Shown: piece by piece, positions 25,658 to 32,453 of the stretch
Layout of the letters: each line of letters starts with the position of its first letter
Position numbering within the stretch: position 1 is the stretch's first letter
Source: Mayamaea pseudoterrestris
Taxonomy: Eukaryota; Bacillariophyta; Bacillariophyceae; Sellaphorales; Sellaphoraceae
Assembly (NCBI GenBank): GCA_027923505.1
Contig: BROI01000008.1
Coordinates: forward strand, 248,001-312,000
Length of the DNA: 64,000 nt
Reading direction: 5' to 3'
Notes under the pieces: model-generated
Told to the model about the DNA's origin: nothing
The model's input: only the letters and a program-made list of their open reading frames with translations
Databases searched by the model: none
Program-made: the position numbers and the translations under genes

Positions 25658-28600
25658 ATGATGCCACCAAACTACAATCATAGACCACCAATATGCTTGA
25701 ATGTTGCGGAGAAACCGTCAGTTGCACGAGCTTTGGCAGGTGTCTTTGCTCGACTCGATGGATCGCAGGATCGAGGCATGAGATCCGACGCACACCAAGT
25801 ATTTACGCACGAGAATGTCTGCTTTCCGAGTGTTTATCAACAAGGACACGGGCAAACAATCAATGGACCAGGTGATTCTATAATAATGCTGCAAAGATTA
25901 CTTGCTGCCATGCCGAACGTCCTTCACCCTCACTCACTCACTATATTCTCATTCACATGAATCATAAACCTTTCAGTAACACCGCATACAATGATAACCA
26001 CGTCGGTTCGCGGTCACTTAGCGAACCAAGATTTTCCTCAGAATTTTGGTTGGGGCAAGGTAGATCCGATTGAACTCTTTTCGGCTCCGATCGAAACAAA
26101 TTACAGGGACGATTTGAAGCCACTGGAACGAATGCTTGCCAACTTGGCGAGAAATGCACAAGTACTTATACTATGGCTGGATTGCGATCGAGAAGGAGAA
26201 GCCATTGGTGATGAAGTTAGACTCGTTTGCATACAAAGCAATCCACAGCTCAACGTATTCCGAGCACGGTTTTCGACCGTCATGGCTGGCGAAATTAAGC
26301 GCGCATTGCAAACACTCGGTCGCTTGAATGAACACTTGGTGCATGCCGTCCAGGCGAGGAGTGAATGTGATTTGAGGGTGGGATCTGCATTCACCAGGTT
26401 TCAGACGCTTCGACTACAGCGCAAATTTGACGGATTTGCTGATGGCGGCGTGGTCAGCTACGGCCCGTGCCAGTTTCCTACGCTGGGTTTTGTTGTTGAG
26501 CGTTGGGCCCGCATTCAAACATTTATTCCTGAAAACTTTTGGTACTTGGAACTTTCAATTACGGTAGAGCCCGATGCAATTGCAAGCGAAGGAGCTGGAC
26601 CAGTCCATGCGATAAACAATAATCTTGGACGTCCCATCGTTTTTACTTGGAAACGAGGACGTATGTACGAGCAAGCCATGTGTCTTTGTTTTTATGAATC
26701 CTGTTTGGAAGCTGGAGAAGCGGTAGTAACCGAATTGTCTGGTCGACCAAAGAATAAGTGGCGTCCAGTGCCTCTGGCAACTGTCGAGCTCCAGAAAAGA
26801 GCGTCGAAATACTTGCGGATTGGGTCCGAGACTCTAATGGGCGCTGCTGAAGAACTATACAATCAAGGATACATTAGCTACCCACGAACGGAAACGGAAA
26901 AGTTTCGTCCTGAGTTTGAGCACCGTCCACTCATACAGCAACTCGCAAATGTCGGCGGCGAAATTGGAGCGTATGCCACTCGCCTATTAACAAACAACAA
27001 TTTCCAAGTGCCTCGCGCTGGACAAAACGACGACCAAGCGCACCCTCCCATTACCCCTTGCAAGGCTGTTGACCCATCTACAATCGATAATCCGACTCAT
27101 CGCAGCGTATATTCACTGGTAGTGAAGCATTATCTTGCTTGCTGCTCACGAGATGCGATAGGCCGTGAATCCCAAATCACCGTGGAAATTGGGACAGAGG
27201 AGTTCACAGCGAAAGGCCTCATGGTAATTGAACGGAACTGGCTTGATATATATCATCCTTTTGAGCGTTGGTCGACTGGCCAGGGCGAGCTTCCGCCTCT
27301 CCAAGAGGGGAGTCGCATTGTCCCGACAAGTCTTAGCCTGAAAGACGGAACGACAACCGCACCAAACCTCATATCTGAGGTTGAGCTTATTTCAGTCATG
27401 GACAGAAACAAAATTGGAACGGACGCAACCATTGCTCAGCACATTACAACCATTCAGGAGCGAGAGTATGCGACGAAGGATGTCAATCAACGATTTTCGC
27501 CGACGCAACTTGGGATTGCGTTGGTTGAAGGCTACAATTCAATGGGATATCAACTCAACAAGCCGGATCTTCGACGAGAAACAGAGTCGGAATGTAACCT
27601 CATTGCTGCCGGCCAGAAGACAAAGGACGAGGTGGTACAGCATGTCCTCACGAAGATGAGAGCATGCTTTGTGGAAGTTTCGCAAAATGCAGAGAAACTC
27701 GATCAGGCTATCGCGCGTCATTTCTCACGACTTGGGTCAAGCAATACAACATCCCAAACGTTGACCGCAAATTTTAGCAAGTGTGGAGTCTGCCAAAATA
27801 TGATGTCTTTAAAGCAGGAGCGCGGTAATGGAAGGAATGGCGTGGGTCGTAAAATCCTATACTGTGGTACCTGCTCGACCGGTTGGACGTTACCTCGAGG
27901 CAACCATCGGCCAAAGACGGACGGCGAGAATAGTCAAGGAGCATTGACGATATGCCCAATTTGTGACTACCAAGTCATTTTTAATGGGAAAGGCGATGGG
28001 TATGACGGGAGTGGCTATAATATATGTCCTAAATGCTATAATGATCCACCAGTTAATTTTGGCGGCGCAAGTGGAGGAGGGGCATTTCGGTGTTTCAACT
28101 GTCATCATCCTAGATGCTCACTTGCAACCGGAACGCCTGGTGGGGACGTAGCAGCATTCCCATGCCCCTACTGCCCCCGTACTAGCAACCAGGCCCGCGA
28201 GGTGATGCTCAGAAAAAGCGCTCGCGGATTCATCCTGTCATGCAACAAATTTATCCCCGGTCAAGATCGCTGCGCATATAAAATATGGCTGCCAAAGGAG
28301 TGTGAGCGGGCTTCAGTTCTCGTGGGAAATGAAAATCATCATGAGATCTGCACGCAGTGTTCTCGGGCTAATCTTCTCGTCCGAAAACTTCATTTCGTCT
28401 GGAAGTCAGGGAGTGTCCCTCCTCACATGGGCCGCGAATGCAGCATTTGTATTCTATGCGATCATGACTTTCGATCAGAAATGCGTATAAATCTTCCGAA
28501 CCCCAACCAAGTAACACCGCGTCCAACACATAATGCGCGACATGGCCGGGGTCACGGGCTTGGCCATGTAGACATTGGCTCAGGCCGGGGACGAGGCAAT

Positions 28601-28684
28601 GCACGTGGCCGAAGCAATGCAACCAATGCTTGTTACTATTGCGGAACTTCTGGACATTTCGCCAACAACTGCCCGAATAATTGA
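25658..28684 (+). CDS. TOP3A: DNA topoisomerase III alpha (two exons)
   Basis: Exon 1 (25658-25871) and exon 2 (25977-28684), separated by a 105-nt intron (GTGATT...TTTCAG), give 973 aa. The join restores the Toprim domain: NVAEKPSVARALAG in exon 1 and MITTSVRGHLANQDFP then LWLDCDREGEAIGDE (the D-x-D-x-E metal site) in exon 2. The catalytic Tyr is Tyr373 in GYISYPRTET. Type IA topoisomerases cut one strand through this Tyr; with BLM/Sgs1 and RMI1, TOP3A dissolves double Holliday junctions. The C-terminus has four Cys-rich parts: CGVCQNMM...CGTC, CPICDYQ...CPKC, CFNCHHPRC...CPYC with a GRF-like ARGFILSCNKF block, then a GRGRGNARGR box and a CCHC knuckle (CYYCGTSGHFANNC). The knuckle is a plant/protist-style addition. 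The first ATG pair (25658, 25661) is used. Confidence 0.95.
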
Positions 28685-28712: not shown

Positions 28713-31215
28713 TTATAGCTGTGAAGCGATCTCGATTCGAAATTTGCGCAGATACGTTTGCAATTGGTTGAATGCTCGCGCACGATGCGATAAAGCATCT
28801 TTCTCTTCAGACTTCATTTCAGCATAAGTCTTGCCCCCGCCCTCGCTTGGTTCAAATATCGAGTCCAAGCCAAAACCATTTTCACCTCGAGGCGCCACGA
28901 TGGAGCCAATCGTTCTCCCGTCAAAGAAGACACATTCGTTACCAGGACCTGGACAGAAGCATACAACAGCACGCACATAGGCTGCCTTATCATCAAAAGC
29001 AAAAAGCATCTTCGCCAATCCCTCGATACCGCATGTGTCAAGAAACGCTTGTGTGTAAGTTCCAGGCAATTCATTAAGCGGACCAAAGCACAATCCTGTT
29101 ATTTCAATGATGGCGGCGCACCCAGCAATTTCGACAGCAGCAGCGCATTGATTTCTGGCAGACGCAATAAAGTCTCCATTTGCCGCCGGCAATTCTATAT
29201 CCCTCTTCTCAAGCTGATACTCCAGGCGTGGAGAGTTGTCGCTCTGGTCAGATTGGAGCAGCCTACTTGCTTCAGCAAAATGATCCGGATCCATATTCGC
29301 AAGAATTATTATCGGTAACAGTCCGTCTCCTTTGGTTCTTTGTCGCTTTTCATCCGGCTCCGAAATGGTTTCAATGCTCGCAACTCTCACAGACGCCAGC
29401 AAATCAGCGACGCTTGGGTCAGGAATAACCAGATCATAGCACGTGACAATCTTCTCCCGCGAATCGCTGTATAGGCAGGCTTGGTCAAACAACCTCCTTG
29501 CTGCATCAGCTAGTCTGTCACGACTCACTGGGTCGTATCCCCAAATCATTTCTAGAGACTTCCACGCCGGCTCTGCATGCAAAAGAAGGTACTTGTTGGT
29601 TGGGTGCATGTGGAAAGCATAAGCGCCGAGCGTCACCGAGCACGCCAGTCGACATGCCATGAGTAGCGGCAAATGCTCCCGCTCAAGTTCCGTCAATTGG
29701 TACACGGAGTTGTAGCCGCGCAGGAAACCAGCGGCAGCCGACAGGGACCGGTTCTGTTTGCCATACGATGACAACATTGCATAAGCCATGGCAATGGCCA
29801 CATCCAAAACTCGCCAACCTAGAATAACATTAACGATATACGACACGAACGAGTGAGAATGTTACAATGTATGGATGCTTTCGTCATGAACACATCAATC
29901 AAAAAATAAGGGCCATGATAGCGATAGCAGCCCGGTGCTTTAAGCCGAGGTTCGCTCTAGCACGTCGACATGATAATTCACGCATGGGGACGGGCGTGCG
30001 ACCTCCGACGACATTTTTGCCATCGGGCGATTGCAAAATTCCCGCAAAAGCATGTGTCACTAGTTAGACATGCACACACAGACTCCAATCAACCAATTTA
30101 TACGTACTCATGACGGAATCTCCAAAATCAATGGCTCCACAAACCATCATCTGTGCCTCGTCCATGATGACATTGGCGTCATTAAAATCCCCATGTATGA
30201 CACCGCGTCTGTAGCCATCGCCAACGCCGGTTCGAAAAAGTCTCTCTTCGAAAGCGTTAATCACAGACTCGATCATGTCTCTTCTCTTCAAGTCCGTGAT
30301 ATATTCAAGGTACTTGCGTAGATCAGATGTATTTTTGGTATCCCATTGATGGTAGCGATTCGCTGAAACGAGCAACGATACATCCAACACGGCACCCTCC
30401 CGTTCCTCCATGCCAAGATTGGCACGAACGCGGTCGAGCGACTTGCTACGCTTGCGGGAAGCCGTCGCCACTGCCGCAAGAAAACTGTCATGTCTGGGAG
30501 CATGGGATGGATTATTGACCATGACAAAGCTTGTGCTGCGTTGCCCTAAAAGCGCGGCTGATGAACCAACGTGCCGCAATGCTCCATTAAGAGCTGATGT
30601 GTTGATATTATCAAGAATTCGATCCATTTTGCCAAGGTATCGTCCAGCATCCGCTAAGGCTTCCAATGGCAAGTGCACGACACTCGACATGGGAGTTCCT
30701 GGCACCCACGTCAAGAGCCGGACAACCAAATCTCGAGGGCTGTGAACCGATGATAAAACAGGAAGCTTTGCTATGCAGACTGGGAATGCTTTTGGCCTCC
30801 GCCTTTCCTCGTCATAAGCTGTCTCTGTCTTGACTAAAATTGGCCGCGAGGTACAAAGGCCATGTTCGTAGCAGAGCTCCATAATGGCATTTTGCAGATG
30901 AATTGCCGAGTTCATTCTTCCCGGCGCATAAAAGTCGTCGCTTTCTTGCATAACTCCAATAAACTCTTGACTTTCGACGCCATTGTGAATCTTTAGCAAG
31001 TAATTGGTTCCATCGTCAGTTTGCAGCATGTAGTTGGCGTCGTCATAGCTGTCAAGCCGTCGAGCGACCTTAACAGTCGGTAAGTCATAATGCTCTTTAA
31101 TTATTGAAAGCAACTGCTCGTCTGATGCAGGGTTGGGGACTAGTAGCTTTCTCATTTCCTCGTCCGAAAGCATTGTAGGGGCGTTCTTCATGATGTCAGA
31201 GTCGTCGCCCGGCAT
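28713..31215 (-). CDS. Hydroxylysine kinase-like protein fused to ITPase/HAM1 domain (two exons)
   Basis: Exons 31215-30108 and 29818-28713 (289-nt intron, GTACGT...TTCTAG) give 737 aa. Residues 1-~480 are an aminoglycoside phosphotransferase-fold kinase of the hydroxylysine kinase type (HYKK/AGPHD1): NYLLKIHNG, VRLLTWVPGTPM, HGDFNDANVI (341-350, catalytic loop), AIDFGD (362-366), then WRVLDVAIAMAYAML and NKYLLLHAEPAWKSLEMIW. Residues ~538-737 are an inosine triphosphatase/HAM1 (RdgB) domain: LCFGPLNELPG, GLAKMLFAFDDKAAYVRAV, FFDGRTIGSIVAPRG, KTYAEMKSEEKDALSHRARA. The fusion lies inside exon 2, so it does not depend on the intron. Odd points: the T-G-N nucleotide-binding start reads L-A-N-M, and the catalytic acidic pair (VEDT in human ITPA) reads IEIT, so NTPase activity is doubtful. 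The kinase part contains an insert of roughly 80 aa (about 205-290). Confidence 0.9.
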
Positions 31216-31491: not shown

Positions 31492-31583
31492 GGAGGCAAC
31501 ATCCTTTTTAGCCTGCTCTACAAGATAGAATGCCTGGCTAGTGTCTCATGATGCTCTATAAACGTTGGTGACAACTTCTCCTC
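31492..31583 (+). repeat. Direct repeat copy 1 of 2
   Basis: This ~92-base segment and the one at 31659-31753 share blocks such as GGCAACAT, CTACAAGAT, TGCCTGGCT, CTCATGATGCT and AACTTCTC in the same order, roughly 75-80% alike by eye. The period is ~167 bases. No coding sense is apparent. Confidence 0.7.
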
Positions 31584-31658: not shown

Positions 31659-31753
31659 AGTGGCAACATTCTTATTTAGGCTGTTCTACAAGATGGAGTG
31701 CCTGGCTGATGCCTCATGATGCTGCAAAATGCCATTGATGAGAACTTCTCTCC
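31659..31753 (+). repeat. Direct repeat copy 2 of 2
   Basis: Second copy of the segment at 31492-31583, in the same orientation. It ends next to a GTACCGGTAC palindrome; the first copy is preceded ~40 bases upstream by GTACCGGTAA. Either an old tandem duplication or two related short insertions. Confidence 0.7.
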
Positions 31754-31866: not shown

Positions 31867-32344
31867 ATGTCCGAAGTCCGCGCATCTCATTTGCTCATCA
31901 AGCACGATGGAAGTCGCAATCCAGGTGAGAAGATAAATTGTATTTCCTTCCGGCCTCTCTAATCTGTTGTTGACGACCCTGGCATGACAACGTAGCCTCT
32001 TCAAGCTTTTACTAACGTTTTATCTTAATTACATTGCAGTATCTCGTCGAACTGGGCAGCAAGTCTTTCTTTCGTACGATAGTGCCATGGAGGAGCTCAA
32101 AAAGTATCAGCAAAAGATCATCAGTCAAGTCACCGCTGGCCAGCCACTCGACGCGGTTTTTTCGCTCCATGCAACAGAGCGTTCCGACTGTTCGTCCTTC
32201 AAAAGTGGAGGCGATTTGGGCTTTTTTGCACGAGGGCAGATGCAGAAGCCGTTCGAAGACGCAGCATTTGCTTTAAGACCAAACGAAATGAGTGACGTTG
32301 TCTCAACGGACTCTGGACTTCATTTAATCTACAGGATTGCCTAG
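31867..32344 (+). CDS. PIN1: Parvulin-type prolyl isomerase Pin1 without WW domain (two exons)
   Basis: Exon 1 (31867-31924) encodes MSEVRASHLLIKHDGSRNP; a 115-nt intron (31925-32039, GTGAGA...TTGCAG, with a TACTAAC branch-point-like motif) follows; exon 2 (32040-32344) continues VSRRTGQQVFLSYDSAMEEL. The total is 120 aa, the size of plant Pin1At. The parvulin fold is complete: the HLLIKH start, SRR phosphate-binding basic patch, CSSFKSGGDLGFFARGQMQK, FEDAAFALRPNEMSDVV and TDSGLHLIYRI. The enzyme flips the peptide bond of pSer/pThr-Pro. The WW domain of animal and yeast Pin1 is missing, as in plants. Convergent with the coiled-coil gene 110 bases downstream. Confidence 0.95.
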
Positions 32345-32453
32345 TCGACCAAAGATGTACTTTATTGATTATACTATATGGCAGACATATATATACATAT
32401 AAACATTTATAAGTGGTTCCATATAAGCACATATGACGGTACACTACTGTAAA

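What the first reader, a model, noticed from the sequence alone, without database searches (positions are those of the whole stretch)
28713..31215. Hydroxylysine kinase-type enzyme fused to an ITPase/HAM1 domain
One open frame (28713-29818) carries the C-terminal half of a HYKK/AGPHD1-type kinase and, after a linker, a full-length ITPase/HAM1 domain (LPGTYTQAFLDTCG, GRTIGSIVAPRG, TYAEMKSEEKDALSHR). I know of no described protein joining these two activities. The ITPase part has lost the T-G-N start and the second residue of the catalytic E-D pair (IEIT), so it may have become a binding or regulatory module for nucleotide supply to the kinase (which in animals uses GTP).
Basis: partly seen in the sequence, partly recalled or inferred. 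Interest (0 to 1): 0.78.

Follow-up and report, generated by a model that had tools for sequence, protein, structure and literature searches.

The report
Kinase fused to a dead ITPase
In an unnamed photosynthetic eukaryote's genome, a hydroxylysine-kinase-type enzyme with intact motifs carries at its tail a whole nucleotide-cleaning (ITPase) domain that keeps its predicted fold but lacks the residues that hold and cut the triphosphate, so it more likely regulates or supports the kinase than cleans nucleotides.

Summary
A two-exon minus-strand gene (exon 1 31215-30108, exon 2 29818-28713) reads as one 737-residue protein: an APH/hydroxylysine-kinase-type kinase with its catalytic motifs (Pfam E 2.1e-17), then a full Ham1/ITPase domain (E 1.9e-33; modelled mostly at pLDDT 90-98; best fold match human ITPA). 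The frame scores as coding through the linker. By sequence the ITPase half is a pseudoenzyme: of 33 columns conserved in 59 prokaryotic Ham1 proteins it keeps 23, its two genome paralogues 29 each. It has lost seven of eight triphosphate/metal/catalytic positions and Trp151, but keeps SHR, F149, D152 and K172. Its nearest paralogue is an intact-looking ITPase fused to a ribokinase, so two of the three Ham1 genes found here sit behind a small-molecule kinase. Two phospholyase-type genes of the kinase's likely pathway are present. Best reading: a working kinase with a retained non-catalytic ITPase module, regulatory or structural; nucleotide supply is unlikely. Sensing, as in bacterial KomB (a Ham1 relative that binds dITP and switches on a partner), is open but untested. 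No eukaryotic relatives could be searched, so conservation and novelty of the fusion are unresolved.

The parts
30108..31215 (-). Exon 1: N-lobe and catalytic loop of the APH/HYKK-type kinase (by my count K75, H341-G-D343, N348, D363-F-G-D366), with a ~75-residue insert at about residues 218-292
   Evidence: ORF, splice model, Pfam APH, alignment with three bacterial kinases
29819..30107 (-). Intron, 289 bases, GTACGT...TTCTAG, phase 1
   Evidence: in-frame join continues the kinase homology without a gap
29330..29818 (-). Exon 2, first part: kinase C-lobe (to about residue 485) and about 50-residue linker
   Evidence: frame scores as coding through the linker; this part was modelled poorly (blocks of pLDDT 34-67)
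28713..29324 (-). Exon 2, second part: Ham1/ITPase domain (residues 535-737), predicted fold kept, triphosphate/metal/catalytic residues lost
   Evidence: Pfam E 1.9e-33; Foldseek to human ITPA 4f95 E 2.5e-20 and ITP complex 2j4e_H E 3.1e-20; residue tables

Best explanation
The gene makes one protein: a working small-molecule kinase of the hydroxylysine-kinase (HYKK) type followed by a catalytically dead ITPase domain (a pseudo-ITPase). Shown by sequence: the open fused frame, the intact kinase motifs, the Ham1 match with a confident predicted fold, and the joint loss of the triphosphate, metal and general-base residues. Inferred: the domain was captured from an ITPA-type gene, perhaps related to the ribokinase-ITPase of the same genome, and is kept because it binds something or holds the kinase in shape. 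The likely roles are a regulatory module that still recognises a purine base (SHR, F149, D152, K172 kept), or a dimerising scaffold, since ITPases are homodimers. The kinase would phosphorylate hydroxylysine or a similar amino alcohol, feeding the two phospholyase-type genes in the genome.
For: One continuous frame and splice model; coding bias through the linker; Pfam. Kinase motifs align with Shinella, Rahnella and Rhizobium homologues; in the two annotated records the kinase is fused to (Shinella) or beside (Rahnella) a class-III aminotransferase gene; the Rhizobium record has no annotation. Two of the seven own-genome class-III aminotransferase pieces scanned (of eight loci) best match the lyase part of the NCBIfam model PRK06148 (L025, L026). 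Ham1: own keeps 23 of 33 conserved columns, C5 29, C3 29; eight of the ten lost are T14, N16, K19, E44, Q46, K56, D72, W151 (human numbering; the first three numbers recalled), the other two F542L and V607I. Own-C5 identity is 27 of 82 up to residue 626 but 56 of 100 after it, whereas C5-C3 is 43 of 84 and 32 of 99. Branch length 1.41 for own against 0.33 for C5 and 1.25 for C3. Domain modelled mostly at pLDDT 90-98, one block at 76. No stop in the domain: chance under neutral drift 0.077, 0.016 or 2.8e-6 depending on the number of changes assumed.
Against: No transcript, protein or relative with the same fusion was seen. AlphaFold confidence does not detect inactivating or destabilising substitutions. 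W151, K89 and W90 are also lost, which weakens the case for a working base pocket. The absence-of-stops test is weak at its most cautious setting (0.077). The intact-looking paralogue C3 also has a long branch (1.25), so branch length alone does not mark loss of function. The ligand and any effect on the kinase are untested.
Confidence: 0.62

Rival explanations
1. Pure scaffold: the pseudo-ITPase only dimerises or stabilises the kinase and binds no nucleotide.
For: 20 of 21 conserved columns after residue 609 kept; known ITPases are homodimers (PMC7865087, passage); triphosphate residues and W151, K89, W90 lost.
Against: SHR, F149, D152 and K172 are kept; SHR is called the substrate-specificity motif (PMC7865087, passage) and R178 is thought, from modelling, to contact the nucleobase (PMC8833965, passage). 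Some of these may also be structural.
Confidence: 0.3
2. Decaying passenger: a captured or obsolete ITPase domain losing function with no present role.
For: Long branch (1.41); N-terminal third diverged; no relatives to show constraint.
Against: No stop or frameshift over about 190 codons (P 0.077 to 2.8e-6 under neutrality); 9 of the 10 losses lie among the 12 conserved columns up to residue 609, while 20 of 21 after it are kept (some of the later columns lie in the patterns used to find the comparison set).
Confidence: 0.2
3. Still an active enzyme with altered substrate or chemistry.
For: Confident Ham1 fold prediction; E71 and SHR retained.
Against: T14, N16, K19, E44, K56 and D72 all replaced; none of the 57 or 58 prokaryotic rows filled at those columns or at Q46 carries the window's residue there.
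Confidence: 0.06
4. Gene-model artefact: two genes, or a misread intron or assembly join, rather than one fused protein.
For: No cDNA available; an in-frame methionine lies near the Ham1 start (residue 545).
Against: No stop between domains; coding bias through the linker; no in-frame GT..AG pair of the one consensus tried that would remove the linker; no N.
Confidence: 0.05

Closest known systems
Hydroxylysine kinase HYKK/AGPHD1 and the bacterial PRK06148-type kinase-phospholyase proteins
   Same: APH domain, HGD..N and DFGD motifs; best NCBIfam match PRK06148 (best stretch on its positions 125-326 of 1015, E 5.4e-41, 140.5 bits, far below its whole-protein cut-off of 1128); lyase-type genes of that model present in the genome
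   Different: In the two annotated bacterial examples the kinase is beside or fused to a class-III aminotransferase; this one is fused to an ITPase domain. Substrate and GTP use not tested; no eukaryotic HYKK sequence compared; no close solved structure (best E 0.0086, APH(2'')-Id)
ITPase / RdgB / HAM1 (human ITPA, PDB 2j4e)
   Same: Whole domain and predicted fold, SHR motif, F, G and D of FGWD, K172
   Different: Lacks T14, N16, K19, E44, Q46, K56, D72, K89, W90, W151; TIGR00042 113 vs cut-off 145.35 bits
Ribokinase-ITPase fusion of the same genome (L001, contig C5)
   Same: Ham1 domain at the C-terminus of a small-molecule kinase; nearest paralogue, 43% over the domain
   Different: Ribokinase (PfkB) rather than APH kinase; its ITPase has the catalytic residues checked
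KomB of the Kongming anti-phage system (PDB 8zsg, 9xvc)
   Same: Ham1 relative matched by sequence (E 6.3e-13) and fold (9xvc_A E 2.8e-14); binds dITP and activates KomC (PMC12948488 passage)
   Different: Separate bacterial protein partnered with an NADase; whether KomB is catalytically dead was not checked here
ASMTL (human; Maf domain fused to a methyltransferase-like domain)
   Same: A house-cleaning NTP pyrophosphatase-type domain fused to another enzyme; its Maf domain 2p5x is a weak fold match (E 5.9e-3)
   Different: Maf not Ham1; methyltransferase not kinase; fusion architecture recalled

Membership tests
Ham1/ITPase family (PF01725), as a fold family | Score above Pfam gathering cut-off over the whole domain | tested here: met
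   116.4 bits vs 22.5, positions 6-185 of 186; fold match
Active ITPase (XTP/dITP diphosphatase) | Triphosphate-, metal- and base-catalysis residues (T14, N16, K19, E44, K56, D72; roles partly recalled) | tested here: not met
   all six replaced
Active ITPase (XTP/dITP diphosphatase) | SHR substrate-specificity motif and F149, W151, D152, K172 | tested here: inconclusive
   S713 H714 R715, F685, D688 and K709 kept; W151 is L687
Active ITPase (XTP/dITP diphosphatase) | NCBIfam TIGR00042 equivalog cut-off | tested here: not met
   113 vs 145.35 bits; but paralogue C3 also falls short (128.4) and C5 only just passes (146)
APH / HYKK-type kinase | APH domain with N-lobe Lys, HGD..N and DFGD motifs | tested here: met
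Hydroxylysine kinase (HYKK) proper | GTP-dependent phosphorylation of 5-hydroxylysine | not testable with these tools
   needs an assay; no eukaryotic HYKK sequence was compared
Hydroxylysine kinase (HYKK) proper | Companion PHYKPL/ETNPPL-type lyase in the genome (pathway context) | tested here: met
   L025 and L026 best match PRK06148 positions 607-1003, E 4.7e-146 and 1.2e-142 (488 and 477 bits; whole-protein cut-off 1128 not reached); their substrate is unknown
Nucleotide-sensing Ham1 regulators (KomB-like) | Nucleotide binding that changes partner activity | not testable with these tools
   sequence and fold relation only

The most novel reading that the evidence does not exclude
The dead ITPase is an allosteric purine-nucleotide sensor fused to a metabolic kinase. 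It keeps base recognition, has given up triphosphate cleavage, and tunes amino-alcohol phosphorylation to the purine or deaminated-purine pool: a eukaryotic, metabolic counterpart of the dITP-sensing KomB of bacterial immunity.
Probability: 0.2. Interest if true: 0.75.

Novelty: new variant of a known kind. Interest (0 to 1): 0.5.

Why it matters
If the fusion is conserved, it would be a eukaryotic pseudo-ITPase serving as a regulatory or structural part of a metabolic kinase, and would extend to a non-immune enzyme the idea (from KomB) that Ham1 folds can read nucleotides rather than destroy them. The occurrence of two kinase-ITPase fusions in one genome, one with an intact-looking and one with a dead ITPase, gives a ready-made pair for comparing what the domain does with and without catalysis.

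Tried and rejected
Fusion in prokaryotes: of 59 prokaryotic Ham1 proteins recovered (60 loci returned; L041 was not recovered by my script), two lay in frames over 500 aa, and Pfam found no second domain in either; the other 57 frames were at most 259 aa, too short for a kinase, and were not scanned. The sample was selected by two motif patterns. Viral contigs: 4 stretches matched a pattern, none encoded a relative of exon 2. A second kinase of this type in the genome: the whole-protein search gave only this gene and the two other Ham1 genes, although the genome has 15 APH matches. The possibility that the ~75-residue kinase insert or the linker is an unrecognised in-frame intron: no pair of the one narrow consensus tried. 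Organism identity: 18S motif and rbcL not found; one own light-harvesting protein had a single solved match at E up to 1e-40, LHCI-11 of 9vfj, so the lineage stays open. Papers: one search listed one paper, on a kelp, whose only passage names hydroxylysine kinase in a transcript list; two searches listed none; two searches listed 12 and 3, none on this fusion by title or start of abstract. The Fisher test (P 2e-4) for concentration of losses in the catalytic group used a grouping chosen after seeing the data and partly recalled, so it is descriptive. The own/C5 sister pairing has weak support (90/38). The scan for PF01205 was an irrelevant probe; the PfkB scan found 12 matches in the genome and was not taken further.

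Full report
What is there. On the minus strand an ATG-initiated frame (31215 to 30108) is joined by a 289-base intron (GTACGT...TTCTAG, phase 1) to an exon from 29818 to the stop ending at 28713, giving 737 residues. Pfam finds two domains at E up to 0.01: APH (53-406, E 2.1e-17) and Ham1p_like (545-724, E 1.9e-33). The splice join falls just after the DFGD motif, and alignment with three bacterial kinases continues across it without a gap. Codon scores trained on 23 other long stop-free frames of the window favour the stated frame over both other forward frames in 20 of 20 blocks, including the linker blocks 29456-29217; in 2 of 20 blocks a reverse frame scored higher. The neighbouring topoisomerase gene (25991-28684, +) ends 28 bases from this gene's stop, tail to tail.

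The kinase half. By my count residues K75, H341-G-D343, N348 and D363-F-G-D366 match the corresponding motifs of the bacterial homologues. The best NCBIfam match is PRK06148, a 1015-residue model (E 5.4e-41, 140.5 bits, far below its whole-protein cut-off). Relatives lie in 292 of 72,556 plasmid records, none covering 80% of the query, all under 60% identical. Of three fetched, the two annotated ones are fused to (Shinella) or directly beside (Rahnella) a class-III aminotransferase gene; the third (Rhizobium) has no annotation. The window's genome (30.6 Mb, 41 contigs) holds two genes, L025 and L026, whose best match is the lyase part of that same model, among seven class-III aminotransferase pieces scanned (eight loci). 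This agrees with the pathway of hydroxylysine kinase and the phospholyases acting on phosphohydroxylysine and phosphoethanolamine (Veiga-da-Cunha et al. 2012, seen only as a reference title in PMC8154272; its text is not held). The use of GTP in animals is recalled. The substrate is inferred, not shown. The whole-protein search found no second kinase of this type.

The ITPase half. The AlphaFold model of exon 2 has blocks of pLDDT 90-98 over the domain, with one at 76 near its N-terminal end, and 34-67 over the kinase part and linker. Foldseek places it on human ITPA (4f95, E 2.5e-20; ITP complex 2j4e_H, E 3.1e-20). Fifty-nine of 60 prokaryotic Ham1 loci from one scan were aligned. This set was found by patterns covering the PGPY and FGWD motifs, so conservation there is partly by selection. 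At 33 columns conserved in at least 85% of the filled rows, the window domain keeps 23, the C5 paralogue 29 and the C3 paralogue 29; 56 of the 59 rows are filled at all 33 columns and keep 26 to 33. The ten losses are F542L, T14N, N16D, K19H, E44A, Q46N, K56Q, V607I, D72I and W151L (F542 and V607 by window numbering, the others human; T14, N16, K19 numbers recalled, the rest by alignment). P86, I88, K89 and W90 are also changed. E44, D72, F149 and R178 are named as crucial for human ITPA in PMC9016069 (passage); R178 of SHR is thought from modelling to contact the nucleobase (PMC8833965, passage). The other role assignments are recalled. Thus E71, F149, D152, K172 and SHR remain while the triphosphate, metal and general-base residues are gone: a pseudo-ITPase by sequence.

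Decay or retained module? The divergence is uneven. Own-C5 identity is 17 of 62 at residues 538-606, 10 of 20 at 607-626 and 56 of 100 from 627 to 726; for the two intact-looking paralogues C5-C3 the same segments give 27 of 64, 16 of 20 and 32 of 99. So, set against the C5-C3 pair, the window domain is less like C5 in the part holding the triphosphate and metal residues and more like it in the part holding SHR and the FGWD motif. Its branch is 1.41 changes per column against 0.33 for C5, but C3, which looks intact, has 1.25. A neutral domain with that many changes would be expected to pick up stops: the chance of none is 0.077 if half the observed differences from C5 fell on this branch, 0.016 if 81% did, and 2.8e-6 with the branch-length estimate. 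This leans towards retention but does not prove it; without relatives no dN/dS could be computed.

Origin. Three Ham1 matches were found in the genome: this one, a stand-alone copy with an N-terminal extension (L002), and one fused to the C-terminus of a ribokinase (L001: PfkB E 2.2e-46, Ham1 E 3e-51). The window domain groups with human ITPA and the C5 domain (95/80), and with C5 within that (90/38, weak). A simple inference is capture of an ITPA-type domain, perhaps from the ribokinase fusion, behind the kinase, then loss of catalysis. The direction is not shown.

Mechanism. Most likely the protein works as a kinase whose tail is a non-catalytic ITPase fold, either regulatory or structural. 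A supply role for nucleotides is unlikely, because ITPases consume nucleotides and this one lacks the cleaving site. A sensing role has a bacterial precedent: KomB, a Ham1 relative found here by sequence and fold, binds dITP and activates KomC (PMC12948488 passage; PMC12774641 passage). Whether the window domain binds any ligand is unknown, and the loss of W151, K89 and W90 counts against it.

Limits. No eukaryotic relatives could be searched, so spread and conservation of the fusion are unknown. Full-text searches listed no paper describing it by title or start of abstract, within an open-licence library only. The organism is not identified: 53 light-harvesting matches, some of them exons of one gene, indicate a photosynthetic eukaryote, and neither the 18S motif nor rbcL was found.

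Noticed in passing
L001 280-2076 (own genome contig C5:643884-647423): A ribokinase (PfkB) fused at its C-terminus to an intact-looking ITPase domain in one 598-codon frame; a second kinase-ITPase fusion in the same genome.
   Followed up: partly
L002 1261-2166: Stand-alone Ham1 protein with a partly hydrophobic N-terminal extension (by eye) that may be a targeting leader.
   Followed up: no
window 31867-32346 (+): Parvulin-type (PIN1-like) gene with one intron (31925-32039), divergent from the fusion gene; family named from recall, spliced frame checked.
   Followed up: partly
window 31502-31555 and 31670-31723: 54-base direct repeat, 83% identical, spacing 168, in the intergenic region between the fusion gene and the parvulin-type gene.
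   Followed up: partly
window 30340-30564 (-), residues about 218-292: About 75-residue insert in the kinase, with a basic stretch, absent from the three bacterial homologues.
   Followed up: partly
window 25991-28684 (+): Topoisomerase gene (Topoisom_bac, Toprim, CCHC zinc knuckle) ending 28 bases from the fusion gene's stop, tail to tail.
   Followed up: no
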